From Brettanomyces bruxellensis (Eukaryota > Ascomycota > Pichiomycetes > Pichiales > Pichiaceae), in assembly GCF_011074885.1 (NCBI RefSeq), contig NC_054686.1, forward strand, positions 682,001 to 746,000: 64,000 nucleotides of DNA. Reading direction: 5' to 3'. The notes under the pieces are model-generated. The model did not search any database. It saw nothing but the letters and a program-made list of their open reading frames with translations, and was not told the DNA's origin. Positions within the stretch are counted from its first letter, which is position 1. The number at the start of each line of letters is the position of its first letter. Made by a program: the position numbers and the translations under genes. Below are positions 6,382 through 15,463 of the stretch, piece by piece.

Positions 6382-8508
6382 TTAGGAGGGGTTAAATGGC
6401 ATCACATAACCAAACTCACTATCAGCATGCGGAGACCGTTTACTCCCCGAATGCGGTTTATTCGGAAAAACGTTGTAATACATTCCATACTGGTTGGTGT
6501 AATTTTCCATCTCCTCCTCCTCCTCCTCCTCGGCATCATTCTTGGGGAAACCATCAAACTTGTTGGTGGCTGGAACTGGCATCTGCCGTTTGCTTTCTGT
6601 AGTTTCACCATTTCTCGCACTTTCTTCCCCACTCGCAGGCATTACTTTTTGTTCACTATACGTATCCGTTTCTGCTGCCTCCAGATAATGCACGGGATGA
6701 TGCTGCGAAACCGGTCTTCCTCCACTTTGTGGCTTTGGTTGTGTTATTGATCTGAGTGTCTCCCAAAAATCAAGTCCTTCCTCTTCTAAATCATCGCTGT
6801 TTGCACTGTTGGTATCGATAGGGACGCCTTTACGACTGGAAATTGGATTTCCATCACCTTGCTGCCTACTGCTTCCATCCTGGCTCATTTCTGCACTATC
6901 CTTGACCAGCTGTTGACGTCTCGGCAACGTATTTCCAACGCTGTTTGATCTATGTACGCTGCTTCTCTCTTGGCTCATCTTTTGCGATGCATTTTCCGTA
7001 CTGTGCGATCTCACAAACGTTTCCGGTCTCTGCTGCCCACTTACCAGTGAACGTTTGTCTCTGTTGGGAAACATGGGTATCAAGGATGAAGGACTGTTGC
7101 TTCCCCCTGCTCCCATCTGGTATTGTATAAGAGCATCAGGAACAACTCCATTTGGAGAGGATACAGATCGTTTGTCTCCGGAAAGTTCCTTTTCCTGCTG
7201 ATCCTGTGGACTGGTTGAGGGCTCCTTGACACTACCAGGTGATGAAGATGTAAGTTTGGGTACCTCGGTTAGCGGTGGAAGGTAGTTGAAGTGCGAAAAT
7301 CTGCTGACGGATGCTTGTGGGTCTGGCACCGGTGATGCCGGACTGTAATGATGATGAATGTGCTGATGAACCGTTAGTGTAACCCCATTATACTTGGCAA
7401 GCTCGATCAGCTTGTGGGCAACACTTGCCGTGGAGATCTGGCCCGAAAACTGCGTTAATTCCTCGTTTGTGCGTGGGTCAAGCAGTGCATATCGCCAGTG
7501 TGTGTATGAACGTGTCGGTGGACACGTGTTATGCCCCAGGATGTTCATCGACGCACCAGAACCAGAGCTTGTGGATGAAGACGGGCTGCTCACTGAAGCA
7601 TATGATGAGGATGTGCTTGGTGAGTATGATTGAGCAATGCCTGTCGCATTACCTTTCTTTGAAGCTGCTTGCTGAAACTGTGGTGAATGTTTAGCCGAAA
7701 TTGCAGATCTATCTCCAGTCTCGGCCTTCACGGATGTAGAAACCTGTAATTTCTCGCTCTTCTTGCTCTTCTTGCTGGCCTCGAACGTGTAAAGCCGATT
7801 TCCGTTCTTATCCAACACTCCGACGGCCTTCATTATATCTTCATTTGCACTTCCTTTGGCCACATCCGTAATAATACGGCGCCACCTGTTTCTGCACGTG
7901 AGACTTGGACGACCTTTGAGCGATTTGGAAATGGCCCTCCACTTAGTTCCGCATTTCTTCACTCCGTGTATTAATTTAAGATCTTCTTCCTCTGTCCAAG
8001 GCTTTAGTCTTTCCTTTGGATCCGTGTTGAGGACCTCAGTAAATCGCTTTGAGCACTGGTCCTCGTTTCTTCCCTTTATCAGCGTTGCCACCTTCTGCCA
8101 CGACGATCCGTATTTCTTGTACGCCTTAACAAGTTGTGCGTCCTCTTCTTTAGTCCATTTACCTTTCCGAAGACGAGGGTTCAGAGATGAGGACCATCTC
8201 TTTCTGCATTCCTTGGACTTTCTACCGTCCAATCCCGCGCTTATTTGCACCCAGTCGATCTCAGAAATATCGATGTCCTCCTTGTTGTATCGCTCTAGAT
8301 TGTGCTTGTCCAAAAATGCCTGAATCACCATAGCTTTCAATAGCCTGTCTTCAGACGGCGTCCAAGATCTCCTCTGTTTTTTTCTAAATATGTGATATCC
8401 CAACGATTCAGAGAGTGCCAAGTGGTCCAAAGTTCCCGAAGATGTTTTACACAGAATCGGATGCTTTGGAACCGGTGCAGTCTTAGCTGCTTTCGTCTTG
8501 GGTGCCAT
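6382..8508 (-). CDS. BAS1: Bas1, Myb-type activator of purine and histidine genes
   Basis: A 708-residue transcription factor. Three Myb repeats lie at about residues 46-107, 114-160 and 167-215, with GKWTKEED and LKPWTEEED opening repeats 2 and 3. The segment at 338-390, including the HQHIHHHY cluster, matches the Bas1 region that interacts with the homeodomain partner Bas2/Pho2 under AICAR/SAICAR control. Short blocks HFNYLPP (about 406) and GLDFWETLRS (about 578), and a PFNPS-like end, are also shared with yeast Bas1, which makes orthology firm. Between them the protein is Ser/Gln/Asn-rich. A run of seven GAG codons (6511-6531) gives an acidic stretch. Bas1 with Pho2 drives ADE and HIS genes. 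PRS1, supplier of the PRPP these pathways use, lies 33 kb away in the window. Confidence 0.95.
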   Translation of the reverse strand: MAPKTKAAKTAPVPKHPILCKTSSGTLDHLALSESLGYHIFRKKQRRSWTPSEDRLLKAMVIQAFLDKHNLERYNKEDIDISEIDWVQISAGLDGRKSKECRKRWSSSLNPRLRKGKWTKEEDAQLVKAYKKYGSSWQKVATLIKGRNEDQCSKRFTEVLNTDPKERLKPWTEEEDLKLIHGVKKCGTKWRAISKSLKGRPSLTCRNRWRRIITDVAKGSANEDIMKAVGVLDKNGNRLYTFEASKKSKKSEKLQVSTSVKAETGDRSAISAKHSPQFQQAASKKGNATGIAQSYSPSTSSSYASVSSPSSSTSSGSGASMNILGHNTCPPTRSYTHWRYALLDPRTNEELTQFSGQISTASVAHKLIELAKYNGVTLTVHQHIHHHYSPASPVPDPQASVSRFSHFNYLPPLTEVPKLTSSSPGSVKEPSTSPQDQQEKELSGDKRSVSSPNGVVPDALIQYQMGAGGSNSPSSLIPMFPNRDKRSLVSGQQRPETFVRSHSTENASQKMSQERSSVHRSNSVGNTLPRRQQLVKDSAEMSQDGSSRQQGDGNPISSRKGVPIDTNSANSDDLEEEGLDFWETLRSITQPKPQSGGRPVSQHHPVHYLEAAETDTYSEQKVMPASGEESARNGETTESKRQMPVPATNKFDGFPKNDAEEEEEEEMENYTNQYGMYYNVFPNKPHSGSKRSPHADSEFGYVMPFNPS
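6511..6531 (-). repeat. GAG trinucleotide repeat (poly-Glu) in BAS1
   Basis: Seven CTC units on the plus strand, read as seven GAG codons in BAS1, making a Glu7 run near the C-terminus. It is a likely site of length variation. Confidence 0.9.
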
Positions 8509-9268: not shown

Positions 9269-11080
9269 TTAACTAAACTGGGAACCCCTGTAGAAAGAAG
9301 AAAAATGCAAACCAGACATAACAGGATCCTGAATCTTATTATCATTCTGCATATTCTGCTTCTTTTGCACCGGATCCGAGGGTAGCAGGTTGAGATCGAT
9401 CTGACTTGCTGTAATTTGAGGTTCGTTGTATGCCCCAAAGTTGAAGCCTGTTGAAGTATCGGTTAGTGTATCCGTACCTGGCGCAACTGCCATGAGTTCG
9501 GCGAAGTTTATGTTGTTATTAGCTGAGTCGGCGGGAGTAACCATTGCATCACTTGCAGACTCGCTTTCGGGCGAAATAAAATAGAAGTATGGAGCGTCTG
9601 CATTGAGAGCACTCTGATCATCGTTGCGGGCAATGGAAAGACCGGCAAAAACGTCATTTGTTTCTCCTGAGGTGTACTCATATGTTGGCGAGGCACTCAT
9701 GCTCATATTGGAGCCAATGCTTAGCGACTCGTTGTTTTGTGAGGTGCGAGACTCGTGATGGTCCGTACCCAAACTGCGGGGCGACATCTCCGTCAAGTCG
9801 GAGGAAATGAAGTCAAGACTGGTTGGGCTTGAGTTTGAAGGCTGCGAAACGTAAGACCGAAATGGATTGGCAAAGGATGTGATGTTGTTCTCGGAAAGCG
9901 TCGAAAGATTCGACATGTCCGATTCCCTTGAGACCATATCGTTGCTGGTGATAGATGAAGTCGTCATCGGTTCGATTTCCGACATCTGCGAATTTCTTGA
10001 CGATGCAACCGAGGATCTGGCCTTCTTGTATGGTGCACCAACCGAGGAAAATGACTTCCTCTTTTCTGCAGCCATGGCAAGAGAAGATGTCATTCCGTCA
10101 TTGGGTGTCCTTGGAAGGTTATGCGAAGATCTAGAAATTTGCATCGATCGTGATCCGATACCTTTAACGTCTATATGGTTCATGGTTCCATTCATTCTGT
10201 TTGGAACAACTGACATAGAATGTCTGCGGACCTGCCGACCTTTCTCACCAGCAGAATGTATGGATTCGTACTGCAGTTGGTGCTCCTCCTCATTGGCCAG
10301 GGTTGGGTTTGCGATTCTTGTGTTTATCACAATTACCCTTCTCCCGGGCACACCCTTCGAGTGTTTTCTGATGTAAGAGTAGCACCTATCACCGTAGTTC
10401 TTGGGTGTGAGCCCTGTGACATTCTTGAAAACTCTGTGGAAATGCCAAGGACTAAGTCTAGATTTGGCCGCCAACTCTTTAAACCCCAACACTCCTCCTC
10501 TTCTTCTGCGTTTTTTCCCGGTAGTCATGAGAATTGAGTTCTTTCTTTCACCCTCGGGACACGAAACCTCGAGGACTGTAGAACTGGCAGCTAATGCAAT
10601 ATGCCTGCATGCTATCGTTATCAACTGCAATCTGTCAAGCTCGTTCTTCGATAAACTGATAGAACTGTGAGGCGATGGGCCACTGCTGCTTTTGCGTTCC
10701 TTCAAGTGCGATGTCTCTGACTTGCTTTCTGGGTATTTCTTCATGGAAGGAAGTGGCTCAAAGCCAATTTCTTTATTCACGGCAGTCACTGTGTTTAGCA
10801 GAAGGTCCAAGTTGACGTTAACATGACTTCCATCACGATAATTCACTGGTTTATTCTGCAAATCTGGAAAGCAGAATTCGCATGGAACGAATCCCTGAGC
10901 CATTGCAGTGTCAACAGAGTTGTAAAATCTAAGGTCTTGGTCTTTGTAGTTCAATATCCCCATATCGCAGTTTGGTCGACAGCACTTTCCTTTCGTGGCA
11001 TGACACACAACAAACTTATCAGCTGCAAACGGGTCTTTGAAGCGAAATGCTGTGATTTTCTGCTGATTTGTGTTATACAT
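9269..11080 (-). CDS. Ada-type zinc domain + AraC-type HTH transcription factor
   Basis: A 603-residue putative regulator. Residues 8-75 match the N-terminal zinc domain of bacterial Ada: Cys34, Cys38, Cys67 and Cys70, spaced C-x3-C-x28-C-x2-C, inside KCCRPNC and VPCEFCFPD; E. coli Ada has C-x3-C-x26-C-x2-C. Residues 140-235 carry an AraC-like helix-turn-helix (FKELAAKSRLSPWHFHRVFK, then TGLTPKNYGDR), the same order as Ada. The C-terminal O6-methylguanine methyltransferase of Ada, with its PCHR site, is absent. About 350 Ser/Asn/Thr-rich acidic residues follow instead, typical of a eukaryotic activation region. In bacterial Ada the residue equivalent to Cys34 takes a methyl group from DNA methylphosphotriesters and switches on DNA binding; whether that holds here is inference. 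The frame opens at a TTG (11092); the first ATG is at 11080. Confidence 0.85.
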   Translation of the reverse strand: MYNTNQQKITAFRFKDPFAADKFVVCHATKGKCCRPNCDMGILNYKDQDLRFYNSVDTAMAQGFVPCEFCFPDLQNKPVNYRDGSHVNVNLDLLLNTVTAVNKEIGFEPLPSMKKYPESKSETSHLKERKSSSGPSPHSSISLSKNELDRLQLITIACRHIALAASSTVLEVSCPEGERKNSILMTTGKKRRRRGGVLGFKELAAKSRLSPWHFHRVFKNVTGLTPKNYGDRCYSYIRKHSKGVPGRRVIVINTRIANPTLANEEEHQLQYESIHSAGEKGRQVRRHSMSVVPNRMNGTMNHIDVKGIGSRSMQISRSSHNLPRTPNDGMTSSLAMAAEKRKSFSSVGAPYKKARSSVASSRNSQMSEIEPMTTSSITSNDMVSRESDMSNLSTLSENNITSFANPFRSYVSQPSNSSPTSLDFISSDLTEMSPRSLGTDHHESRTSQNNESLSIGSNMSMSASPTYEYTSGETNDVFAGLSIARNDDQSALNADAPYFYFISPESESASDAMVTPADSANNNINFAELMAVAPGTDTLTDTSTGFNFGAYNEPQITASQIDLNLLPSDPVQKKQNMQNDNKIQDPVMSGLHFSSFYRGSQFS

Positions 11081-11178
11081 CTTTGCTGTCAAATTTACTT
11101 TCGTTCTGAGACTGAGTTAATCTCTAGGTCAATTGTAAATCTTTGAACACAGATATAACGTAATATCCAGTGAGCTTG

Positions 11179-11211
11179 CACTCAATTAACGATAATGCTC
11201 TCAATTGAGTG
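11179..11211. promoter_or_regulatory. Inverted repeat upstream of the Ada-like gene
   Basis: CACTCAATT at 11179-11187 is repeated in inverse as AATTGAGTG at 11203-11211. The right half lies in the 10-base perfect palindrome CTCAATTGAG (11200-11209). It sits about 100-130 bases upstream of the ATG, where an operator or autoregulatory site would be expected. Role inferred only. Confidence 0.4.
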
Positions 11212-13938
11212 TTTCGTCACAGTTATGGTTTGAAACACAATGCCCGTCTTCTAAAAATGATTGCGCTTAGTTAGAAGGGGAACAAAAAAAATATATATAT
11301 AAAAAATTCAATCACCAGTAGTAAGGTTAAATTAAATGTAATATATTTCTTTTTCAATGTGGAGTTTTTCAAGCAGTCGTAACCAATAGAATAAAGGAGA
11401 AAAAGAAATGGTGGTATTCAATCTCTAGCCAAATAAATATTCAAACAGCTAAATGAGAAAGTCAAGTCTAATTCCAAACCCGAGGTAACAAAACTGGCGG
11501 GACCCCTTTTTAAACATACACGGGAAAGACTATTTATATATTTAAAGATGTGTATGTGAAGAATTATTCCAATAGAAGAGAATAGATTACCTAGGTGCAT
11601 GTTAGATTAAAGAAATATGTACAATAAGCGGATTTTGATGTAGCTGGGTGAAGTTTTCACTTCTCAATGTTTCAGCGTGTACGTCACCAATGCAAAATTG
11701 ACGCACCTTTTTGTTTTTCTTTGAAAAAGCGAAAAAAAAGAAAAAGTGGAAAACAACAGGTATGAAGAAAGAAGAATAATGGAAAGCAGAAACTAAACAA
11801 TCATCTAAAATAGTCAGATTGTTCGAAAGTACCTGCAGATCATAATCACACGCCGCACATTAATATATGAATTTTTTGGATCTTTCCGTTTCCAGTTAAT
11901 GCATACAATACAGAACAATAGTTTCAACTACTCTCTGAGGGGACAGAAAAGCAGAATAATCAGTCAACGATTCTTATTGTTTTCGGCCCCTATTTTCTCC
12001 TTTTATTGGAACATATAAAAAAAATTGCTCTGAGTTCACACATGTAAATATTCATCTACACACGGAAGAAAAAAAAAAAAATAAATAAAAAATGAGATGA
12101 AAAACATGAATGATTAACGCCTTCCTTCATCTACGCTGGCTTTCAGCCCACTTAGGAGTGGGGTAGAATGTAAGCATAAATTTTGTTTTATCTGTTTCTA
12201 AAAACTGTACAAGCAGAGCATATACATTCCATTCGTCCATATACTTTAGGTTCGCTCGCTTCTTAACGGATCTAGGCCGAAAAGCCATTAATAAAGTATA
12301 ATACAAAGTTTTTATTTTTCTGCCATTCTATTCATAATTTGAACCATAGTTTTTTTGTCGGTCTGCGCTTTCGCTCCGAATCATACCCAAAAAAGAGGGG
12401 GAAAAAAATTTCTACCTATTTTACGAATGCAGGGTCGGTGGGGTGACGACCATCAAGCAGAAGTATGCTGGAATGATGACAGTGGGGAAAAAATAAACAT
12501 ATTTCATGAAAGCATAGCCGTGTGTGTTGATTGAAACAATTGTTCATGTTTTTCCATATCTCCATTTAGAAAGACTACGATGTGTTCCAAGCATGAGAAA
12601 AAATAATCTGTGTAATCAATTGGGCATGAATTTTCCTTCAAAGGTTCACCAATTCATCCCTAATAACTGATCTCAAGCCCCATTCGTATCAATTTACATA
12701 ATGGTTTAATAATCTTTCTTTATTTTCACGATGCATCAATTAATCTGGGCCATAGAAGAAACCACACTTTTCCAACATGGTCTAGGCTTGAATGATTTCG
12801 AACCATGTGGAGCAAAAGAACAAACTTAAAAAGCTTATCTTTGTTCTCTACTATCATTTTCGTATTCTATTTTACACCATTTCATGGGGGTGCCCAAGAT
12901 ATGATTACCCTTATGGGCGAATATGCTCACGTTTTCAAATCGACTTGTGTTATCCATTAAACATCCGAAAAATGAATATGAAAGCGAACTGCTGAAACAA
13001 ATTCATAAATTGAATTTTTTGTATTATTTTCCAAATATTAAGCCATATGTTGTGGGACGCCACGCCTTGATTAATGCAGACCCTCCCAATAACCATTAAG
13101 CATTTTCATGATTAAAAGTCTTTTTGGGTAATTGGGGTGCCCAGCGCGGATGCCCGCCCTTCCCACGGCTTCCTAAAAGGGCCGAAATATGAAAAAGTCC
13201 GTAATTAACTCACTATTCGCGGAAATATGGCCGGAATTGTAAGAGTAGACGTATTGAAATAAAAATGAATAATAACAAAATAATGTAGAAACAAAGAAAC
13301 ACAACAGAAGAATGATTTTGATTGATCGGTCTACGTATGGCTGACGCGGTTTAAATACGAGTTTTGGATGTTACATTATCTTGTTTATGTGGAATATTTT
13401 TCAGAGAAGTATTCTATGCAGTATAAAGAAATTTGTTGCAAGCACTGAGGTAATTTGAATTGCGTTAGATAAAAAATAATAATAATAATTGTAGCAACAC
13501 AAAGAAAAAGTTCAACACATAATTGAATTTTCAAATAAAAGGTTCCTTAAACATTTAAGAATAATACGGGAAAATTGCAATTGTACACTTACTCCCGACT
13601 TTGACGAATCGCTAGCTCTATAATGTTACGGTACCAGGCATCCCCACTTTGTTCGTCTGGGGCTCGAGCGGTTTGAAATCTTTATTTTATAAATTATGGG
13701 TTTACTATTATTAACACCTTCTGCTAGGAATTCCAGAAGTTTTTTTGGGGCGAAACGCGGCTGTATTGGAGTGAAATTTCATCTATTTATAACGTCTTCC
13801 GTTATTTTAGTATTCTAAAAATACACGGCAGTAAGCTGTACTGAGGGGTTCCGAGTTGAAAGAATGTCGATACTTTTCCAAGTGTTACCTATAAACTGAA
13901 ATGCATCAGCTAAAAGAGACCGTTGTAATCTGTTTTGC

Positions 13939-14046
13939 GTCATACACTAGTTATTACGGGTTATGACGTACTAGCAGTGCGGTAAAATATGACAGAAATA
14001 TGTACTGTCATTACACTCGTTTCTTGCCGAATGTCAAGTGTATGAC
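13939..14046. promoter_or_regulatory. Cluster of GTCATACACT elements
   Basis: GTCATACACT at 13939-13948, its exact reverse complement AGTGTATGAC at 14037-14046, and a one-insertion copy GTCATTACACT at 14007-14017. The last two could form a hairpin of about 10 pairs. TATGACG at 13962-13968 also mirrors the CGTCATA of the first copy. Likely protein-binding sites; binder unknown. Confidence 0.35.
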
Positions 14047-15463
14047 TGACATTCTCATCACAAATAATATTTCCATTGAAAGAAAAAGAACAAATGCAAA
14101 GATCCTAATGACAGCCTTTTTTGCTTGCGCTGACAGGAACGGATCAGGGTCTTCCAAAGTGAGAAAGAAAAGAAAGTGAAGGAACCTTTTTAAAGAAACG
14201 CAAAATAATGATCTTCCATCACCGTTACAACTACAGAAAACGGATAGATTTGCCAGAAAGGTTTGATAGAGTAGTCACATAAATTAAAATAGCTGATAAA
14301 TGCAGAAAAGCCGCATTTTAACGAAGATAAAATAAATCACCAGCTGCTCTAAAAGGCCTGTAAAAGAATGAGACGTGATCTGTTTCATAGTTGTTCAAAC
14401 TAAGATATGATTTTACACTTTTAAAGAGATGAAACATGAGTAGGCTGAATGTTATCATATGCATAACAATAGTATTGACACATTCTAGTTTTCAATCCGT
14501 CACTGAGATTCTACCGTTTGTATTACGCAGGGTACTGATGAGTATGAAATTATAATTTTCATATTCGGACTTCCGCCTTCTCGTTGTCTGAGATCTACGG
14601 AAAAAGCTGTTGTAGTCATATGTTACACTGATACATTACAATAAGTAAGTAAGTATATTTTTTAGGTTCTTTCTTCCGTCGTATTCTTATACAAACTGTA
14701 TGCGATTATTTTTTACGGTCGACTACGCCCGCACGGCGTGAAGTACATTATTCAATTATGCAACTCCGCCTATTATTGGAGTTACTGGTTCACTTATTCT
14801 GCAAATATTATTATTTTTTCCACGACGACGTATCAGCCAATTATGTGCATGCTTAAGAACGTCCCAACATATTTCGATTGTCACTCGGTTCTAGTGCATC
14901 TCCTATTGTGCTGCTTGTTTATTTATGCTTGTTATCCGGAAGTTCTTCGGATTTTAGGAAAGTTTTTTTTTATTTCCAATCAAGCTCGCTCCAGATGCTG
15001 AATCCTACCATAATTAAATACTCTATTTCGGAATTTGCATTTATATTTCCTCAGGGTCAAACAAATACGCGAATGTTTTTCTATTCAGCGAATAAATAAA
15101 TCGATAATGCCGTGGCTCCATCGGATTTTTATGTCTATTCTCAAACATTATCATCCTTCCTATTGGCACCCGCACCCCGCCTTCAATAGTTGAGGTAAAA
15201 GCAGTTTTTCCCCACTTCTGCATTGTTCCTGCCTCACTACTGAGTCATACGCACCAGCCAGCAAACGCTTCTCCTCTTTCTGAATCGGATCTCCCGTTTT
15301 AATCTCTTTCTTCTGTCTTTTCGATTTTCATCAAAGTCTGGCTCACTTTAGCAAAATAAAATTAATGCACTTCTATTCGTAATTCTGCTTGTAGTTTATG
15401 ATGTCACAACATGGCATACTGACGACATCAGACTTGTAAATTGTCAACGCTACAAATAGCTAT

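What the first reader, a model, noticed from the sequence alone, without database searches (positions are those of the whole stretch)
9269..11080. Yeast regulator combining an Ada-type Cys4 sensor with an AraC HTH, without methyltransferase
Seen: Cys34/38/67/70 in the Ada pattern (KCCRPNC...PCEFC) followed by an AraC-like HTH (LSPWHFHRVFKNVTGLTPK), in the order of bacterial Ada. The methyltransferase half is missing and is replaced by a ~350-residue Ser/Asn-rich acidic tail. Known: in E. coli Ada this first Cys repairs methylphosphotriesters and the methylated protein becomes an activator. S. cerevisiae has no Ada-like factor that I know of. Inference: a bacterial-type sensor converted into a eukaryotic transcription factor, possibly alkylation- or metal-responsive.
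Basis: partly seen in the sequence, partly recalled or inferred. Interest (0 to 1): 0.75.

Follow-up and report, generated by a model that had tools for sequence, protein, structure and literature searches.

The report
Yeast gene regulator from bacterial Ada
A yeast gene switch related to a bacterial sensor of chemically damaged DNA still has that sensor's metal site and DNA-reading helix, but residues around the metal site that are otherwise almost never changed have been lost in its yeast relatives, so it probably now answers to some other signal.

Summary

New here: 17 Ada-domain positions are at least 98% conserved in both 112 bacterial-type and 70 filamentous-type rows. Yeasts keep 11, all four Cys included, but lose V31, T34, R45, N51, R67 and R71; 0 of 133 keep all of the last five. 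In the HTH 7 of 7 are kept. The Ada-to-HTH spacing is longer and holds a basic run. The genome's only MGMT-family hit is a Trp-type alkyltransferase-like protein.

Best reading: a repurposed single-HTH yeast transcription factor, probably no longer an Ada-type alkylation sensor. No binding or activity was tested.

The parts
9269..11080 (-). Whole ORF, 603 aa: Ada-type zinc domain + split single AraC HTH + disordered tail
10862..11056 (-). Ada_Zn_binding domain (residues 9-73)
10979..10981 (-). Cys34, equivalent of the E. coli methyl-accepting Cys38
   Evidence: aligned; Cys in 133 of 133 yeast-type rows
10967..10969 (-). Cys38, equivalent of E. coli Cys42
   Evidence: 133 of 133
10880..10882 (-). 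Cys67, equivalent of E. coli Cys69
   Evidence: 133 of 133
10871..10873 (-). Cys70, equivalent of E. coli Cys72
   Evidence: 130 of 133, Ser in 3
10577..10648 (-). Helix A of the AraC domain (residues 145-168, contains ACRHIALAA)
   Evidence: model helix, block pLDDT 88-94; conserved in 120 homologues
10499..10576 (-). Insert that splits the AraC domain (residues 169-194), ending in the basic run KKRRRR (10499-10516), nuclear-signal-like (inferred)
   Evidence: 19-94 residues, median 33, between the CRHxxxAA motif and the GG in 120 of 120 homologues; run of 4 or more K/R within 45 residues before the HTH motif in 130 of 133 yeast-type, 0 of 69 filamentous-type and 0 of 112 bacterial-type rows measured
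10361..10498 (-). HTH (residues 195-240); recognition helix at about 10415-10450 (PWHFHRVFK region)
   Evidence: HTH_AraC match; near-invariant columns
10292..10342 (-). Conserved segment after the HTH (residues 247-263, RRVIVINTRIANPTLAN)
   Evidence: clearly kept in 4 of 5 near relatives aligned, weaker in P0008; block pLDDT 75-89
9272..10294 (-). Ser/Asn-rich tail (residues 263-603), low model confidence from about residue 284, acidic at 423-542; candidate activation region (inferred)
   Evidence: segments under pLDDT 50 start at 284; composition
9479..9508 (-). Short conserved tail motif NFAELMAVAP (residues 525-534), candidate activation motif (inferred)
   Evidence: kept in P0002, P0003 and P0008, not in P0004 or P0016 (3 of 5 relatives)
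11081..15463 (.). 4,383-base upstream gap, the longest between adjacent main ORFs of the window (next 1,911)
   Evidence: 29 main ORFs picked by me out of the 49 listed, gaps; only ORFs of 40-67 aa found inside it (40 aa or more sought); introns not considered

Best explanation
This is a nuclear, sequence-specific transcription factor of a yeast-wide (Saccharomycotina) family related to Ada/AdaA-type regulators. It reads DNA with a single AraC HTH whose recognition helix closely resembles the one that reads the B box (GCAA) in bacterial Ada; the basic run next to it probably serves nuclear import or backbone contact; the disordered tail probably recruits the transcription machinery. The Ada domain still has the fold and four Cys of the Zn(Cys)4 site but has lost residues otherwise near-invariant around it, so it most likely no longer docks on DNA methylphosphotriesters and takes up their methyl group. 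It is conserved for some other input (protein contact, or direct modification of its thiols). Shown: domains, conservation, selective loss, fold match, one Ada domain in the genome, no catalytic MGMT detected. Inferred: zinc, nuclear location, activation, GCAA preference, loss of methyl transfer.
For: Ada domain and HTH. Fold: block pLDDT 90-98 over model residues 1-100, and N-Ada entries are the only 3 Foldseek hits at E <= 0.001. Selective loss: of 17 Ada-domain columns at least 98% conserved in both 112 bacterial-type and 70 filamentous-type rows, 11 are kept at 90% or more in 133 yeast-type rows (four Cys, R39, P40, F27, F54, A61, G65, P74) and 6 are not (V31 0/133, T34 21, R45 50, N51 7, R67 6, R71 1); in the HTH 7 of 7 are kept. 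All five of T34/R45/N51/R67/R71: 110 of 112, 68 of 70, 0 of 133; two Trichomonascus-type rows 0 of 2; median charge of segments 31-51 + 64-74: +8, +9, 0, -1.5. Thinned to under 70% identity: 9 of 10, 13 of 14, 0 of 62 keep all five, while 59 of 62 yeast-type rows keep all four Cys. The domain is not simply decaying: 74 of 80 residues equal P0002, against 218 of 341 in the tail. Only one MGMT-family hit in the genome, with PWWRV for PCHRV; closest solved sequence is alkyltransferase-like protein 1, 1.5e-16. GCAA B box and its required Arg: PMC10957082 passages; that Arg is kept in 133 of 133.
Against: Cys34 (the methyl acceptor's equivalent), R39 and P40 are kept, so weak or altered methyl transfer is possible. 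The lost positions were not tested as DNA contacts: that role is recalled and inferred from charge and invariance. 50 of 133 yeast-type rows keep R45 and 21 keep T34. C. albicans MGT1 is strongly MMS-induced while S. cerevisiae MGT1 is not (PMC9317300 passages), as expected if an Ada-like factor drove it there, though that induction is partly Rad53-dependent. Two AAT-N6-GCAA (A+B box) sites lie in the 1,137 bases before the MAG1-like ORF, against about 0.34 expected at the window's shuffled rate (Poisson 0.047, found after looking at several loci). No expression, binding or activation data exist for this protein here. The route of descent is open (p-AU 0.40).
Confidence: 0.66

Rival explanations
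1. Retained Ada-type alkylation sensor: Cys34 still accepts methyl groups from DNA phosphotriesters and the methylated protein activates repair genes, as reported for Aspergillus.
For: All four Cys, R39 and P40 kept; Aspergillus precedent (PMC10779285 passages); C. albicans MGT1 is MMS-induced and S. cerevisiae MGT1 is not (PMC9317300 passages); two AAT-N6-GCAA sites before the MAG1-like ORF (weak, post hoc).
Against: T34, N51, R67 and R71 lost in most or nearly all yeast-type rows and the basic charge around the site gone; no PCHR methyltransferase detected in this genome; AAT-N6-GCAA is not enriched in the window (16 against 19.4 expected); the main text of the C. albicans MMS study does not mention ADAEC (0 occurrences; supplements not read; that ADAEC is the orthologue is inferred from its name).
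Confidence: 0.15
2. Direct electrophile, redox or zinc sensor: the Zn(Cys)4 cluster reacts with small electrophiles or loses zinc without touching DNA, changing the factor's activity. (Overlaps with the best explanation, of which it is one specific form.)
For: The four Cys are kept while near-invariant residues around them are lost; an extra Cys at position 26 in 121 of 133 yeast-type and 61 of 70 filamentous-type rows, against 4 of 112 bacterial-type.
Against: No induction or modification data; a purely structural zinc site explains the same conservation.
Confidence: 0.2
3. Recent bacterial gene or assembly contaminant.
For: Bacterial-type domains in a yeast.
Against: A 99% identical protein from another source, a 74% relative and many yeast-named relatives; basic run before the HTH in 0 of 112 bacterial-type rows; on a 1.19-Mb contig beside Myb, kinase and ferric-reductase genes; third-position GC 49.5% lies within the range 23.8-55.5% of the 29 main ORFs.
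Confidence: 0.01

Closest known systems
E. coli Ada, N-terminal half (PDB 1u8b, 1zgw, 1wpk, 1adn)
   Same: Cys4 domain followed by the AraC HTH with SPxHxHRxFK; fold match
   Different: Second HTH and methyltransferase absent; V31, T34, R45, N51, R67 and R71 equivalents changed; 142 residues instead of 42 between the fourth Cys and the HTH motif, with a basic run; long tail
Bacillus subtilis AdaA type (Ada domain + AraC, methyltransferase on another protein); layout recalled, not fetched
   Same: Review PMC10779285 says that B. subtilis has two separate proteins for the two functions (passage)
   Different: Not compared by sequence here
Filamentous-fungal Ada-type proteins (e.g. Pseudogymnoascus P0252, Cercospora P0322) and the reported Aspergillus response
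   Same: Ada domain + single HTH, no second HTH motif and no PCHR (this is how the group was defined)
   Different: 68 of 70 keep all five T34/R45/N51/R67/R71; 42-57 residues between fourth Cys and HTH motif and no basic run, 0 of 69. No Aspergillus sequence was identified among the rows
SaraC of Stereum hirsutum (PMC9769804; abstract, passages and section 5 seen)
   Different: Basidiomycete; authors call it a hypothetical bifunctional regulator/O6-methylguanine methyltransferase and report DNA binding and demethylation in vitro; sequence not compared here
Candida albicans 'Metal binding domain of Ada family protein' (P0060), probably the gene called ADAEC (identity inferred from the name, not tested)
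   Same: Same family and layout
   Different: 27 of 80 residues identical in the Ada domain, 35 of 46 in the HTH

Membership tests
Ada_Zn_binding domain (PF02805) | Profile score above the curated cut-off | tested here: met
   50.1 bits against 23; 58 of 58 members of alignment A2, the window protein included, match at E <= 0.01
Ada_Zn_binding domain (PF02805) | Four Cys ligands | tested here: met
   Cys34/38/67/70; 133, 133, 133 and 130 of 133 yeast-type rows. Zinc itself not tested
Ada_Zn_binding domain (PF02805) | N-Ada fold | tested here: met
Ada methylphosphotriester methyltransferase/regulator | Near-invariant non-ligand residues T34, R45, N51, R67, R71 | tested here: not met
   Window protein has Lys30, Gly41, Asp49, Val65, Phe69 there; 0 of 133 yeast-type rows keep all five. 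That they define the activity is inferred
Ada methylphosphotriester methyltransferase/regulator | Methyl transfer onto the Cys38 equivalent | not testable with these tools
   needs an assay
E. coli-type bifunctional Ada | C-terminal O6-methylguanine methyltransferase with PCHR | tested here: not met
   No PF01035 or PF02870 match up to E 10; PCHR in 0 of 133 yeast-type rows
AraC/XylS family DNA-binding domain | Profile score above cut-off | tested here: inconclusive
   24.8 of 26.6 bits as a whole protein, 28.6 in the genome search; 57 of 58 members of A2 match at E <= 0.01
AraC/XylS family DNA-binding domain | Two HTH motifs | tested here: not met
   HTH_18 matches only positions 1-30 of 80 here, against 1-79 in E. 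coli Ada, where HTH_AraC matches twice
Fungal transcription factor (functional class) | Sequence-specific binding and effect on transcription | not testable with these tools
   inferred from the HTH, basic run and tail

The most novel reading that the evidence does not exclude
A DNA-damage sensor was turned into a general eukaryotic transcription factor in the budding-yeast lineage: its zinc-thiolate switch was kept but cut loose from DNA, so that the cluster now senses cellular electrophiles, redox or zinc (or binds a partner), while the old B-box-reading helix runs a new regulon.
Probability: 0.4. Interest if true: 0.65.

Novelty: new variant of a known kind. Interest (0 to 1): 0.48.

Why it matters
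If right, it is a clear case of a bacterial-type DNA-repair switch rebuilt as a eukaryotic transcription factor, with the sensor's chemistry separated from its old target across a large group of yeasts. It gives a ready contrast (filamentous-type proteins that keep the residues around the zinc site, yeast ones that do not) for testing which residues make Ada an alkylation sensor. It would also give a first mechanism for a conserved but little-studied regulator of Candida-group and methylotrophic yeasts that S. cerevisiae is thought to lack.

Tried and rejected
Single-sequence folding gave mean pLDDT 33.4 and was not used; the 58-row alignment fold was. Ada-box search: AAT-N6-GCAA occurs 16 times in the window against 19.4 expected, one of them at 11083-11095(-) just before the ATG; AAGCGCAA occurs twice against 2.07 expected, one at 11261-11268(-) upstream of the ORF. 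In the seven fetched loci of this genome (L001-L007) the MGT1-like one has no AAGCGCAA, and the MAG1-like one (L005) has two AAT-N6-GCAA sites before its ORF and one within it (about 0.34 expected in 1,137 bases, Poisson 0.047): a weak post hoc lead, not evidence. only showed that one 18-base stretch occurs once in the genome. That the factor drives an MGT1 methyltransferase was rejected for this genome because the only MGMT-family hit is alkyltransferase-like (the search scores only the best candidates). HhH-GPD genes (three, one MAG1-like by my reading of its sequence) and an AlkB-domain gene exist. One origin for the fungal rows was inconclusive: holding the bacterial rows together gave p-AU 0.40; 100 columns, few for 84 rows, with the tool's warning that long branches meet and that the bootstrap had not settled. 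Loss of the Ada domain in Yarrowia-type rows (P0139-P0144 carry no PF02805) was not accepted because a missed first exon is possible. No tRNA and no Rfam hit in the window.

Yeast-type rows = P0001-P0132 and P0136, mostly from unnamed sources; dropped: P0133-P0135, P0138-P0145 and P0147-P0151 (no or partial Ada domain, or not placed). Bacterial-type = second-HTH motif or PCHR (114, of which 112 with an Ada match); filamentous-type = neither (77, of which 70 with an Ada match and 69 with an HTH match); 4 set aside as ambiguous. These groups rest on motifs, not taxonomy, so 'no PCHR, no second HTH' in the filamentous-type group is true by definition. Tree rows: 28 yeast-type rows chosen by hand, 26 filamentous-type and 26 bacterial-type at random, 2 Trichomonascus-type, E. 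coli Ada and the window protein. The five-residue set was picked after seeing the data; the 98%/90% count was added as a rule-based check.

Literature: the ten searches listed no paper that I recognised as a study of this yeast family's function; ADAEC appears in 7 relevant papers of the 8 listed, as expression or promoter-occupancy mentions in the passages read. Searches show only 30 of 1,241 and 30 of 1,955 papers, and the library holds open-licence papers only.

Full report
WHAT IS THERE. The ORF at 9269-11080 on the minus strand encodes 603 aa. Pfam gives Ada_Zn_binding (PF02805) at residues 9-73, 50.1 bits against a cut-off of 23, and HTH_AraC (PF00165) at 201-229, 24.8 bits against 26.6; the six-frame search of the genome puts the latter at 28.6 bits, over the cut-off. 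The genome (13.1 Mb, 9 contigs) has one Ada_Zn_binding match. The 4 PDB sequences that phmmer returns at E <= 1 are all N-Ada. A Brettanomyces naardenensis relative (54% over 44% of the query) suggests a Brettanomyces-like yeast; the species is inferred.

ANATOMY. From N to C terminus: the Ada domain with Cys34/38/67/70; a linker; helix A of the AraC domain (145-168); an insert ending in KKRRRR (189-194); the HTH (195-240); a short conserved segment (247-263); and a tail to 603. Between the CRHxxxAA motif of helix A and the GG before the HTH there are 19-94 residues (median 33) in 120 of 120 homologues. From the fourth Cys to the HTH motif there are 87-223 residues (median 154) in 133 yeast-type rows, 42-57 in 69 filamentous-type, 40-47 in 112 bacterial-type and 42 in E. 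coli Ada; a run of four or more Lys/Arg within 45 residues before the motif is found in 130 of 133, 0 of 69 and 0 of 112, and in 2 of 2 Trichomonascus-type rows. The second HTH is missing: HTH_18 matches positions 1-30 of 80 here and 1-79 in E. coli Ada. PCHR occurs in 0 of 133 yeast-type rows. Residues 253-603 are Ser 17.9% and Asn 8.8%, net -12; the acidity lies in 423-542. A short motif, NFAELMAVAP, is kept in 3 of the 5 relatives aligned.

A YEAST FAMILY. Homologue searches return named relatives from Komagataella, Ogataea, Kuraishia, Pachysolen, Pichia, Wickerhamomyces, Diutina, Metschnikowia, Candida and others. None of the printed names is a Saccharomyces; this is not a formal absence test.

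THE KEY CONTRAST. I sorted retrieved proteins into 133 yeast-type, 112 bacterial-type (second-HTH motif or PCHR) and 70 filamentous-type rows (neither), with E. coli Ada as numbering reference. In the Ada domain 17 columns are at least 98% conserved in both of the last two groups. The yeast-type rows keep 11 at 90% or more: the four Cys, R39, P40, F27, F54, A61, G65, P74. They do not keep six: V31 (0 of 133), T34 (21), R45 (50), N51 (7), R67 (6), R71 (1). In the HTH all 7 such columns are kept. All five of T34, R45, N51, R67 and R71 are present in 110 of 112 bacterial-type, 68 of 70 filamentous-type, 0 of 133 yeast-type and 0 of 2 Trichomonascus-type rows; the median charge of the segments around the site is +8, +9, 0 and -1.5. 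After thinning to under 70% identity the counts are 9 of 10, 13 of 14 and 0 of 62, with 59 of 62 yeast-type rows keeping all four Cys. The domain is not simply decaying: 74 of 80 residues equal the relative P0002, against 218 of 341 in the tail. That the lost residues face DNA in N-Ada is recalled and inferred; two primary papers that I tried were not held. A review names CRPSC and PCKRC as the two motifs that confer methylphosphotriester transfer (PMC10779285 passages); the window protein has CRPNC and PCEFC.

GENOMIC SETTING. The only PF01035 (MGMT family) match in the genome encodes a 141-aa protein with PWWRV in place of PCHRV, whose nearest solved sequence is alkyltransferase-like protein 1 (1.5e-16); the ogt model finds the same place below its cut-off. 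A catalytic O6-methylguanine methyltransferase, the usual partner of an Ada response, was therefore not detected. The 4,383-base gap upstream of the gene is the longest between the 29 main ORFs I picked in the window (next 1,911), which would suit a heavily regulated gene. In C. albicans a gene called ADAEC, probably the orthologue (inferred from its name), is called white-specific and of unknown function, with a long transcribed region upstream (PMC3447688 passages), and is listed as a core Efg1 target (PMC8980467 passage) and in a list of Hsf1 targets (PMC10699808 passage).

HOW IT PROBABLY WORKS. In bacteria the Ada domain reads an A box (AAT) and the HTH a B box (GCAA), the latter through a conserved motif with a required Arg (PMC10957082 passages). 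The yeast-type rows keep that Arg position in 133 of 133, so a GCAA-like site is the prediction. The zinc domain is more likely now a protein-interaction or thiol-chemistry module than a methylphosphotriester acceptor. None of these steps has been shown. Against this reading: the methyl-accepting Cys, R39 and P40 are kept; C. albicans MGT1 is MMS-induced while S. cerevisiae MGT1 is not (PMC9317300 passages); and two A+B-box-like sites lie before the MAG1-like ORF of this genome, a weak post hoc result. The A+B-box pattern is not enriched in the window.

DESCENT. On 100 columns, with the six lost columns removed, the yeast-type rows sit on one side of a branch (100/96) and the filamentous-type rows on one side of another (99/95), the latter placed among bacterial-type rows; a bacterial clade excluding all fungal rows is not rejected (p-AU 0.40), long branches meet, and so one or two acquisitions remain possible.

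KNOWN OR NEW. An AraC-type DNA-binding domain is listed as typical of fungi (PMC5415576 passages); SaraC of Stereum hirsutum has been described (PMC9769804 passages and one section); Aspergillus species are reported to show a methylphosphotriester-repair-mediated adaptive response with the two functions on separate proteins (PMC10779285 passages). The kind is therefore known. The yeast-wide selective loss around the zinc site, the split HTH and the lack of a detected partner methyltransferase here were not seen in print in the searches listed under Tried and rejected.

Noticed in passing
L002:1468-1893 (+), genome contig C9:806152-806439: The genome's only MGMT-family hit is a Trp-type alkyltransferase-like protein (PWWRV), resembling alkyltransferase-like protein 1; no catalytic methyltransferase detected.
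   Followed up: partly
window 11081-15463: 4.4-kb gap upstream of the gene without an ORF of 100 aa or more, over twice the next longest gap between main ORFs in the window.
   Followed up: partly
P0139-P0144, P0149: Yarrowia-type (3 of 6 named) and Blastobotrys relatives have the HTH but no Ada domain match; either a real loss or a missed 5' exon.
   Followed up: no
P0152-P0154, P0171: These filamentous-type proteins carry after the HTH a stretch that looks by eye like the N-terminal domain of the methyltransferase, without the PCHR part; Pfam did not call it in P0171.
   Followed up: no
P0133: A record named for the basidiomycete Cerrena zonata holds a protein of the yeast type (HTH, no Ada domain match); possibly a contaminant or mislabelled assembly.
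   Followed up: no
window 6382-8508 (-): Neighbouring gene is a Myb protein with three matched repeats (resembles Bas1; name recalled).
   Followed up: no
L010, contig C9:1360837-1361481 (-): One AlkB-type 2OG-Fe(II) oxygenase domain match (PF13532, 88.4 bits, 438-aa frame) in this yeast genome.
   Followed up: no
L005:863, 1019 and 2048: Three AAT-N6-GCAA matches at a MAG1-like gene, two before its ORF; a weak, post hoc lead.
   Followed up: partly
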